From contig CAMMXG010000008.1 of NCBI GenBank assembly GCA_946500895.1, positions 1 through 52,465 of the forward strand: a stretch of 52,465 bases of DNA, written 5' to 3'. The stretch's first letter is position 1, and every line of letters starts with the position of its first letter. The DNA is from an uncultured Mycoplasma sp. (GTDB taxonomy: Bacteria; Bacillota_I; Bacilli_A; RF39; UBA660). The notes beneath the pieces were generated by a model. It worked only from the letters and a program-made list of their open reading frames with translations. It did not search any database and was not told the origin of the DNA. Positions 38,256-39,971 of the stretch are shown one piece after another. Position numbers and translations under genes: made by a program.

Positions 38256-39971
38256 TTATGTTGCAACTACGTAAGGATTATCAGCTGTTCCATTTCCACT
38301 TATTTGTACATCAGCCTTCAGATTTATTACTGGACGCACACCACACGTGCCTGCCGCGCCGACGTCGCGGAGCTTGCCATTCGAATCCGCAATGGACACC
38401 CAAGCAAAACTGTTCGCATTAAAGAGATGCGGAGACATGGTCCAATAGTTTTGGTTTGTATATAGGTAATAACTTGTGTTAGTTGTGTTAAATACTCCTC
38501 CCGCATATGCTACTTCATCGGCTGTGATTAATCCTATTGGATATTGTAATGCTTTATTTCCTTTTTTACTTGCTCCTACTGTGAACAAATCACTACTATT
38601 TGTGCATTTGAAGCTTGGACTTTTATTTATATATAGTCTATTATATGCTGCATATGTAGTATATTTTGTTCCTAATCCTGTTCCATTATATGGTGTTCTA
38701 TCATTACAGAATCCTGCATTTATATCTATATCATCTGCATAACTTGCCAGATTATTTTGATACCATGTATTTAATGCTGTAAGTATGGTACTATTTGTTC
38801 CAGTCCCATGTGCATTTCCGCTGGTATATTTAAATCCTACGTACATATTATCATTATCCGAACTATTGAATGCACTGGTACTGGATAACTGTGTTCCACT
38901 GCCTGTGGTTGTTGTACTTGTTCCATTATAGATTAATCTTATCGTTCCATCTCCATTAATTCGTATTATCCGCCAATAAAATCCTGCCCATTTTACCCAG
39001 TTATCACTCGGGTTTCCGGCAAAATAGTATGTTGTTCCATCATCATCCTCTGCTTGGTATATTGTTCCTGTGGTGTTGGTTGTTAGGGTGGTACTAAAAT
39101 CATCCCTTGTTAAAATATTTTTATTAGCTAATATTATTTCTGCTACTGTTGGTAGCTTAATTTCTAATGGATTTGAACATATTGTTTTACTGGTTCCATT
39201 TAGTTTTGTACATACCATTTGATTATTTTCATTGCCTTGTAATTCTACTATGTAACTATTATTTTGTATTGATGCTGTTGTATTTGGTGTACATATATTG
39301 TCTGTTGTTACACAATATGTTGCACTTGTTACATTGTTTGTTAAGTTTGATGTTAGTGTTTTATCGTTTAATTCAAATGTTGCTTCTAGATTATCTACTA
39401 CTTGAATATCTGGATTTGCTACTACATTTATTTTTGATTGATATACTTTATTTGCTGCCACTTCTACTGTGGCATCATAATCTAACCATAGTTTTAAATG
39501 ATATGTTTTTGTTTCACTTGATTTTAGTGTTCCTGTATATAAGTTATATGCTTCATATGCATTAGCTACTTCTGGTGTTACACTGCTATTATCACTTAGG
39601 ATAGATATTACATTTCCTACTGTATCACTTGATAGCGATACTTTGATATAATCTGCACTAAGTGAATTAGCTTGTTTGTTTAAACTTTCTAAATTAATTT
39701 GATAATTTGCATCAGTATTACAAGTATTTGTTATAGTAAAATCGTAACTTGTTCCATCTAATCCTTCTATATCTGTGATAGGATAAATATTAGATAAACT
39801 AATAGATGCTGATGCATCAGTGAGTGATATATTTAAACAACCACTAGTGAATGTATTTGCTGTCTCCTGACTTCCACCAGTTGAGAAAAACGCAAATGTT
39901 ATTCCTATTACTCCTATTAAAACAACTACAATTCCCCCAACTAATAATGATATTTTAGCACTTTTTTTCAT
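38256..39971 (-). CDS. P3: exported modular protein with SipW/TasA-like N-terminus and C-terminal WRIIRINGDG...GVRPVINL domain
   Basis: 571 aa, N-terminal half very similar to P1, C-terminal domain shared with P1 and P2; SD GGAGTAAAGGAAG. Confidence 0.78.
   Translation of the reverse strand: MKKSAKISLLVGGIVVVLIGVIGITFAFFSTGGSQETANTFTSGCLNISLTDASASISLSNIYPITDIEGLDGTSYDFTITNTCNTDANYQINLESLNKQANSLSADYIKVSLSSDTVGNVISILSDNSSVTPEVANAYEAYNLYTGTLKSSETKTYHLKLWLDYDATVEVAANKVYQSKINVVANPDIQVVDNLEATFELNDKTLTSNLTNNVTSATYCVTTDNICTPNTTASIQNNSYIVELQGNENNQMVCTKLNGTSKTICSNPLEIKLPTVAEIILANKNILTRDDFSTTLTTNTTGTIYQAEDDDGTTYYFAGNPSDNWVKWAGFYWRIIRINGDGTIRLIYNGTSTTTTGSGTQLSSTSAFNSSDNDNMYVGFKYTSGNAHGTGTNSTILTALNTWYQNNLASYADDIDINAGFCNDRTPYNGTGLGTKYTTYAAYNRLYINKSPSFKCTNSSDLFTVGASKKGNKALQYPIGLITADEVAYAGGVFNTTNTSYYLYTNQNYWTMSPHLFNANSFAWVSIADSNGKLRDVGAAGTCGVRPVINLKADVQISGNGTADNPYVVAT
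38334..38432 (-). other. candidate hypervariable (DGR-type) region within P3
   Basis: ~58% GC by hand count over 93 nt; only 1 of 33 codons ends in A; abrupt return to AT-rich codons at CCA GTA ATA AAT. Confidence 0.5.

What the first reader, a model, noticed from the sequence alone, without database searches (positions are those of the whole stretch)
38334..38432. A-depleted, GC-rich patch before 'GVRPVINL' in P3: candidate diversity-generating retroelement variable region
Seen directly: on the coding strand, CCG CAT CTC TTT AAT GCG AAC AGT TTT GCT TGG GTG TCC ATT GCG GAT TCG AAT GGC AAG CTC CGC GAC GTC GGC GCG GCA GGC ACG TGT GGT GTG CGT is ~58% GC with one A-ending codon in 33. The codons on either side (ACA AAC CAA AAC TAT TGG; CCA GTA ATA AAT) return to the AT-rich style of the gene. 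The patch encodes PHLFNANSFAWVSIADSNGKLRDVGAAGTCGVR, and the equivalent segments of P1 and P2 differ while the flanks (YWTM.., G[VI]RPVINLK[AS]DV) are conserved. Established knowledge: DGRs mutate template adenines to any base during retrotranscription into a C-terminal C-type-lectin-like region, leaving A-poor variable regions, often with NNC codons and near-terminal 'RP' motifs; targets can be far from the RT. Inference: P3 is a remote DGR target. No reverse transcriptase or template repeat was seen here.
Basis: partly seen in the sequence, partly recalled or inferred. Interest (0 to 1): 0.85.

Follow-up and report, generated by a model that had tools for sequence, protein, structure and literature searches.

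The report
Mutated patch fed by scattered templates
A gut bacterium related to Candidatus Caccenecus seems to keep a scattered collection of small stand-alone RNA genes as templates for an error-prone reverse transcriptase that rewrites the tips of dozens of exported proteins, and the flagged patch is one such rewritten tip.

Summary
Observation confirmed: 38334-38432 (-) is the most GC-rich 99-nt stretch of the window (58.6% GC; rest of the gene 31%). The DGR reading is supported and extended. A complete DGR (RT with IGNLTSQ motif, Avd, MutS-I-like protein, TR, VR) lies on contig C2. In addition, 15 stand-alone template-RNA genes are scattered over eight contigs. Each carries an A-rich TR enclosed by a conserved, covarying RNA fold; most have their own -10 box. 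P3 is one of 26 target-type genes read out. In 14 well-matched VR/TR pairs, 51% of TR adenines but 10% of other bases differ (P=2e-56); a 99%-complete relative repeats this, and its RT operon has no adjacent template. The RNA family is in 32 of 36 genomes of the genus, sometimes as tandem arrays. I found no published description in the open-access library searched. Not shown: activity, which RT uses the scattered templates, and P3's exact template.

The parts
38256..39971 (-). P3, target gene (571 aa): hydrophobic N-terminus, TasA/camelysin-like region, DUF6273-like C-terminal domain carrying the VR
   Evidence: ORF; families (weak, below curated cut-offs); homologs
38335..38436 (-). Variable repeat (VR), GTCTCCG...GTGTGCG; the flagged 38334-38432 lies almost wholly inside it
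   Evidence: Aligns to stand-alone template C5:28029 with 16/28 A and 9/71 non-A mismatches; hypervariable in homologs
38437..38447 (-). Conserved upstream edge of the VR (codons for YWTM)
   Evidence: Conserved in 37 homologs and in most targets of the genome
38310..38334 (-). Conserved downstream edge (RPVINLK), where VR genes and templates diverge in sequence; candidate equivalent of the IMH site
   Evidence: VRs continue CCAGTAATAAATCTG, templates CCAATATCCTTTT; role inferred
1364..3169 (+). P1, paralogue without a template-like VR
   Evidence: Best template score 48, 39/76 non-A mismatches
19643..21421 (-). P2, paralogue without a template-like VR
   Evidence: Best template score 55, 32/74 non-A mismatches

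Best explanation
The patch is the variable repeat of a diversity-generating retroelement (DGR) target. In this genus the templates are mostly supplied in trans by a multi-copy family of stand-alone ncRNA genes. Proposed steps: (1) each template gene is transcribed from its own promoter, starting at the GG of GGUUAAUCU [inferred from TATAAT six bases upstream in 10 of 15]; (2) the RNA folds so that its 5' end pairs downstream of the TR (P1) and, with P2 and hairpin P3, presents the TR in a closed loop [covariation shown]; (3) an Avd/RT complex, perhaps with its MutS-domain-I-like partner, copies the TR with errors at adenines [inferred from A-biased differences]; (4) the cDNA replaces the VR near the C-terminus of any of dozens of exported DUF6273-like proteins, guided by the shared flanks [inferred]. 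Templates differ in length (93-108 nt, always multiples of three) and in fixed residues, so targets can draw on several sub-libraries [inferred].
For: DGR RT with IGNLTSQ motif, Avd and cis TR/VR on C2. 15 stand-alone templates. A-biased VR/TR differences: 188/370 vs 97/999, A-to-N 188 vs N-to-A 34, P=2e-56; replicated in a 99%-complete relative, P=4.5e-20. P3 itself P=1.4e-5. Covarying P1-P3. The cis TR RNA of the C2 RT is found by a model trained only on stand-alone templates and folds alike. TATAAT at fixed distance. RT-B operons lack a cis template, and RT-B tracks with templates across the genus, P=0.008.
Against: No activity data. P3's exact template is not among those recovered, and P3 has non-A differences including T-to-C. 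This assembly (71% complete) shows only the C2 RT, whose own template has another sequence; the RT-B lineage was not found in it. Eight template-bearing genomes show no RT-B, and some RT-B copies carry stop codons. Three of 15 templates lack a recognisable -10 box. All data are metagenome-assembled genomes.
Confidence: 0.85

Rival explanations
1. The dispersed cassettes are silent donor cassettes used by ordinary gene conversion (as in pilE or vls antigenic variation), without reverse transcription.
For: Many intergenic partial copies and many expressed targets.
Against: Gene conversion does not make differences fall on template adenines in one direction (188 A-to-N vs 34 N-to-A). Cassettes carry a conserved RNA fold and usually a promoter, and a DGR-type RT is present.
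Confidence: 0.04
2. A DGR fossil: the templates and VRs were made by a DGR that is no longer active in this species; P3 is now fixed or drifting.
For: P3 has nine non-A differences from its nearest template; the RT-B lineage was not found in this assembly; several RT-B genes in relatives have stops.
Against: The C2 RT and Avd ORFs are intact; some VR/TR pairs differ almost only at A, e.g. C20:11080 vs C11:41375, 11 A and 2 non-A; templates keep covarying helices and coding-length steps.
Confidence: 0.2
3. In this genome the C2 RT (RT-A), not a missing RT-B, serves all the stand-alone templates.
For: It is the only DGR-type RT in the assembly, and its cis TR RNA shares the P1-P3 plan and is detected by the template model.
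Against: In relatives it is RT-B that accompanies the templates (24 of 32 template-bearing genomes, 0 of 4 without); G008 and G032 have both RTs; this assembly is only 71% complete.
Confidence: 0.3
4. A foreign GC-rich insert or ordinary selection on codon use, with no DGR.
For: Local composition shift.
Against: At least 23 other genes of the genome carry the same kind of patch at the same place, most with matching templates.
Confidence: 0.01

Closest known systems
Bordetella phage BPP-1 DGR (brt, avd, TR, mtd)
   Same: DGR-type RT with SQ motif (8ub7, from memory the BPP-1 RT, is the closest solved structure), Avd, A-biased VR, VR near the 3' end of the target, template RNA with a structured 3' part as described in PMC12875486
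   Different: There one cassette with its TR beside the RT and one target; here many stand-alone template genes away from the RT, dozens of targets, and an extra MutS-I-like protein
Treponema denticola DGRs with remote targets (PMC4891356)
   Same: Bacterial chromosomal DGR, several remote surface-protein targets
   Different: There remote targets share an RT-linked TR type; here the templates themselves are dispersed and multi-copy
Thiohalocapsa PB-PSB1 trans-acting DGRs (PMC10907252)
   Same: Targets apparently diversified in trans by an RT and/or TR encoded elsewhere
   Different: There trans activity between otherwise ordinary DGR loci; here autonomous template genes with promoters, some in arrays
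DGRs with several TRs and VRs in the MetaCSST survey (PMC6642488)
   Same: More than one TR serving several VRs
   Different: The A-biased example there has two TRs with six VRs; here up to 25 template genes per genome, many far from any RT

Membership tests
Diversity-generating retroelement (DGR) | RT of the DGR clade with (I/V/L)GxxxSQ motif and YxDD | tested here: met
   C2 RT has IGNLTSQ and YMDD; RT-B of relatives has IGNMTSQ and YMDD. Motif definition from PMC3521204. No RT tree was built.
Diversity-generating retroelement (DGR) | Avd or other accessory protein | tested here: met
   C2: DivGenRetAVD E=7.6e-14, below its curated cut-off, bAvd E=3.1e-8. RT-B operon: PHROG Avd E=1.4e-15, bAvd 40.2 bits vs cut-off 40.
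Diversity-generating retroelement (DGR) | TR/VR pair whose differences fall on template adenines | tested here: met
   51% vs 10%, P=2e-56; 42% vs 15%, P=4.5e-20 in G016
Diversity-generating retroelement (DGR) | VR near the C-terminus of a target gene | tested here: met
   VR ends about 25 codons before the stop of P3
Diversity-generating retroelement (DGR) | TR next to the RT gene (usual layout) | tested here: not met
   Met for the C2 RT, not for the 15 stand-alone templates nor for eight RT-B loci. This is a usual layout, not a requirement of the mechanism; it is what makes this a variant.
Diversity-generating retroelement (DGR) | C-type-lectin fold of the variable domain | tested here: inconclusive
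   Confident model (pLDDT 84); top PDB hits are mostly C-type lectins but E>0.4. DUF6273 match weak for P3, annotated in some homologs
Diversity-generating retroelement (DGR) | P3's own template identified | tested here: inconclusive
   Nearest C5:28029 (16/28 A, 9/71 non-A) and L092 (14/27, 12/75)
Diversity-generating retroelement (DGR) | Demonstrated mutagenic retrohoming | not testable with these tools
   Needs reads or culture

The most novel reading that the evidence does not exclude
The templates are a self-maintaining population: reverse-transcribed copies also overwrite or multiply the template genes, so the template library diversifies and expands by the same enzyme, with YhcG nuclease genes travelling in the arrays as part of the module. 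Template-to-template differences are themselves concentrated at adenine-majority columns (28% vs 5-12%, P=5e-21), the homologous unit begins at the inferred transcription start, and tandem arrays exist. Selection on surface codons and ordinary tandem duplication could give the same pattern.
Probability: 0.15. Interest if true: 0.92.

Novelty: new variant of a known kind. Interest (0 to 1): 0.8.

Why it matters
If right, targeted protein hypermutation can be organised as one enzyme with a library of trans-acting template RNAs serving dozens of surface proteins in a 1.3-Mb genome, closer in logic to a repertoire than to the one-cassette DGR. DGR finders that look for repeats around the RT would miss such templates and targets, so DGR reach in gut Bacilli may be underestimated. 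It also makes a question directly testable: what must a template RNA carry (P1-P3) to be used in trans.

Tried and rejected
A single nearby template for P3: none on the window's contig; the C2 cis TR differs at non-A positions. Template tail in IMG/VR: no exact match; a shorter 16-mer gave 48 contigs, not followed up and probably chance. Rfam: only STnc490 below its gathering score, judged chance. Full-length fold search: dominated by Ig-like domains, uninformative. The retron-type RT (C5:3389) and the group II intron RT cut by a contig end (C5:57373) were set aside by family matches. Template-like hits beside RT-B operons lie inside target-gene VRs. Papers: nothing on DGR with DUF1016, nothing on dispersed template genes; most subscription papers and bioRxiv preprints could not be searched.

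Full report
OBSERVATION. P3 is a 571-aa ORF at 38256-39971 (-). The flagged 99 nt are 58.6% GC with one A-ending codon, and are the most GC-rich 99-nt stretch of the 52,465-base window (mean 28.9%); the rest of the gene is 31% GC with 42% A. In an alignment of 37 homologs, residues 513-546 are hypervariable (entropy 1.86 bits vs 0.81; identity to P3 36% vs 73%), with fixed scaffold residues in between. P1 and P2 lack a template-like tip.

A WHOLE FAMILY OF SUCH PATCHES. The window is contig C8 of a 1.28-Mb, 53-contig assembly, 71% complete. The P3 patch gives 39 matches in it, the weakest of them chance. From the stretches fetched, 26 target-type tips (YW[TS]...RP) were read out, P1 and P2 included.

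A DGR IN THE GENOME. Three RT hits were found: a group II intron RT cut by a contig end, a retron-type RT, and one on C2 with IGNLTSQ and YMDD. Its operon has an Avd (NF033474 E=7.6e-14; bAvd E=3.1e-8) and a small protein with weak MutS domain I similarity. Just upstream lie an A-rich template (AACCGAACTCGTCGAATTCGAACAACGTC...) and a GC-rich VR copy at the end of a target gene. The closest solved structure is 8ub7, which from memory is the BPP-1 enzyme. I call this RT-A.

STAND-ALONE TEMPLATES. Hits covering only the variable part, without the coding flanks, turned out to be A-rich templates outside the target genes. A search with the conserved 3' tail found 15: C5 (3), C11 (2), C16, C18 (3), C22 (2), C24, C30 and C45 (2). 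Each begins GGTTAATCT (once GGCTAATCT), has a short leader, the TR (GTCTCC...GTGTGCG), then a ~150-nt conserved tail, and most end in a terminator-like hairpin with a T run. TATAAT lies exactly six bases before the GG in 10 of 15, and 12 of 15 match at least 5 of 6 bases; at random sites of the window 18.5% reach that over the nine offsets tested. The 15 TR segments are 93-108 nt, all multiples of three, so coding length is kept in what looks like a non-coding gene. VR genes are not clustered with templates (2 of 26 within 5 kb, expected 1.7).

RNA FOLD. RNAalifold on 15 cassettes gives P1 (GGUUAAUCU with AGAUUAACC, enclosing the TR), P2 (UAUCCU/AGGAUA), hairpin P3 and a downstream stem. On 55 cassettes of the genus, P1-P3 have 98% paired cells and 11 pairs with changes on both sides; none of 500 shuffles reaches this, and sliding the partners by one column drops pairing to 47%. 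The shuffles ignore relatedness, so they are not exact probabilities. A covariance model of the tails alone finds the cis TR of RT-A, which was not in the training set, at 42.5 bits, E=1.3e-5. That RNA folds on its own into the same P1/P2/P3 plan, although its overall fold energy is not exceptional (z=-1.64).

ADENINE BIAS. With alignment scoring that treats all mismatches alike, the 14 best-matched VR/TR pairs (score at least 110, a threshold I chose) differ at 188 of 370 TR adenines and 97 of 999 other positions (P=2e-56), with A-to-N 188 and N-to-A 34. Pairs share templates and flanks, so the P value overstates independence; the direction is the stronger point. Over all 26 tips the rates are 51% at A and 13-26% at T, G and C. 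P3 against C5:28029: 16/28 and 9/71, P=1.4e-5. A template in a relative (L092) shares P3's TTTAATGC..GAACAGTAATGCTTGGGTG core but fits no better under neutral scoring. P3's exact template was not recovered.

RELATIVES. The model finds the RNA in 32 of 36 genomes of the genus, 1-25 copies each, and in none of 64 genomes outside it at E<=1e-4. A wider family sample finds about ten copies in G178 of another genus, four in G351, and mostly weak single hits elsewhere (only ten candidates per genome were scored). In G014:C20 about a dozen templates stand in tandem roughly 300 bp apart. Names attached to exact tail matches are uncultured Bacilli, an uncultured Mycoplasmatota bacterium and Candidatus Caccenecus avistercoris. 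A second RT lineage, RT-B (~46% identical to RT-A; operon MutS-I-like/Avd/RT), occurs by my reading in 24 of 32 template-bearing genomes and in none of the 4 without (P=0.008). Eight RT-B loci hold no template RNA; template-like hits there lie inside target VRs. Some RT-B copies carry stops.

REPLICATION. G016 is 99% complete, with one related RT (RT-B, no cis template), 11 templates on six contigs and about 40 target hits. Using eight TRs and 32 VRs recovered there, the 11 best pairs (score at least 105) differ at 42% of TR adenines and 15% of other bases (P=4.5e-20).

TARGET. The N-terminal region resembles exported TasA-type proteins weakly. The C-terminal domain is DUF6273-like (weak for P3; annotated in some homologs). 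The top PDB fold hits are mostly C-type lectins but not significant.

COMPARISON. It works like a DGR and meets the tested core features; it differs in template organisation. Multi-VR DGRs, a few with more than one TR (PMC6642488), remote targets (PMC4891356) and trans activity (PMC10907252) are known. [quoted passage not shown] I found no description of dispersed or arrayed autonomous template-RNA genes, within an open-access library only. I therefore call it a new variant of a known kind.

OPEN POINTS. Which RT serves the templates in this genome; whether the system is active; why P3 carries T-to-C changes; what the YhcG genes between templates do; and whether templates themselves are overwritten (their own variation is A-biased, but selection on surface codons could give the same pattern).

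Noticed in passing
G000 C5:26668-29512, C11:41373-42866, C18:20414-21890; also G026:C30, G028:C52, G009:C11 and others: YhcG-family genes (DUF1016_N + YhcG_C PD-(D/E)XK nuclease) sit between template RNA genes on the same strand; 17 template-downstream-of-YhcG pairs in 10 genomes, with similar spacing. YhcG is also common away from templates and in genomes without them, so a role in the system is unproven.
   Followed up: partly
window 38335-38436: P3 carries T-to-C changes at template positions that are otherwise conserved (scaffold V-F-x-V reads V-S-I-A), which adenine-directed mutagenesis does not explain.
   Followed up: partly
L150 (G014:C20:20500-26118), positions 2050-5619: Tandem array of about a dozen template RNA genes; two neighbouring units are near-identical (about 4400-4690 and 4700-5000) and several templates are adenine-poor themselves.
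   Followed up: partly
L147:7755-8177 (-); L021:2667-3026 (-) and 3290-3583 (-): Small proteins with MutS domain I similarity in the RT operons (E=7.6e-6 in RT-B; 0.002 and 0.095 beside RT-A): possible mismatch-recognition accessory.
   Followed up: no
L023 (G000:C5:1889-5404), 1216-2430 +: Retron-type RT gene (best NCBIfam match retron St85 family, below its cut-off) in the same genome.
   Followed up: no
L029:6476-7384 (+): Collagen-like GPTGPTG repeat protein gene beside a template cluster on C18.
   Followed up: no
window 1364-3169 (+) and 19643-21421 (-): Two paralogues of P3 without a template-like variable tip: possibly former targets or never targets.
   Followed up: partly
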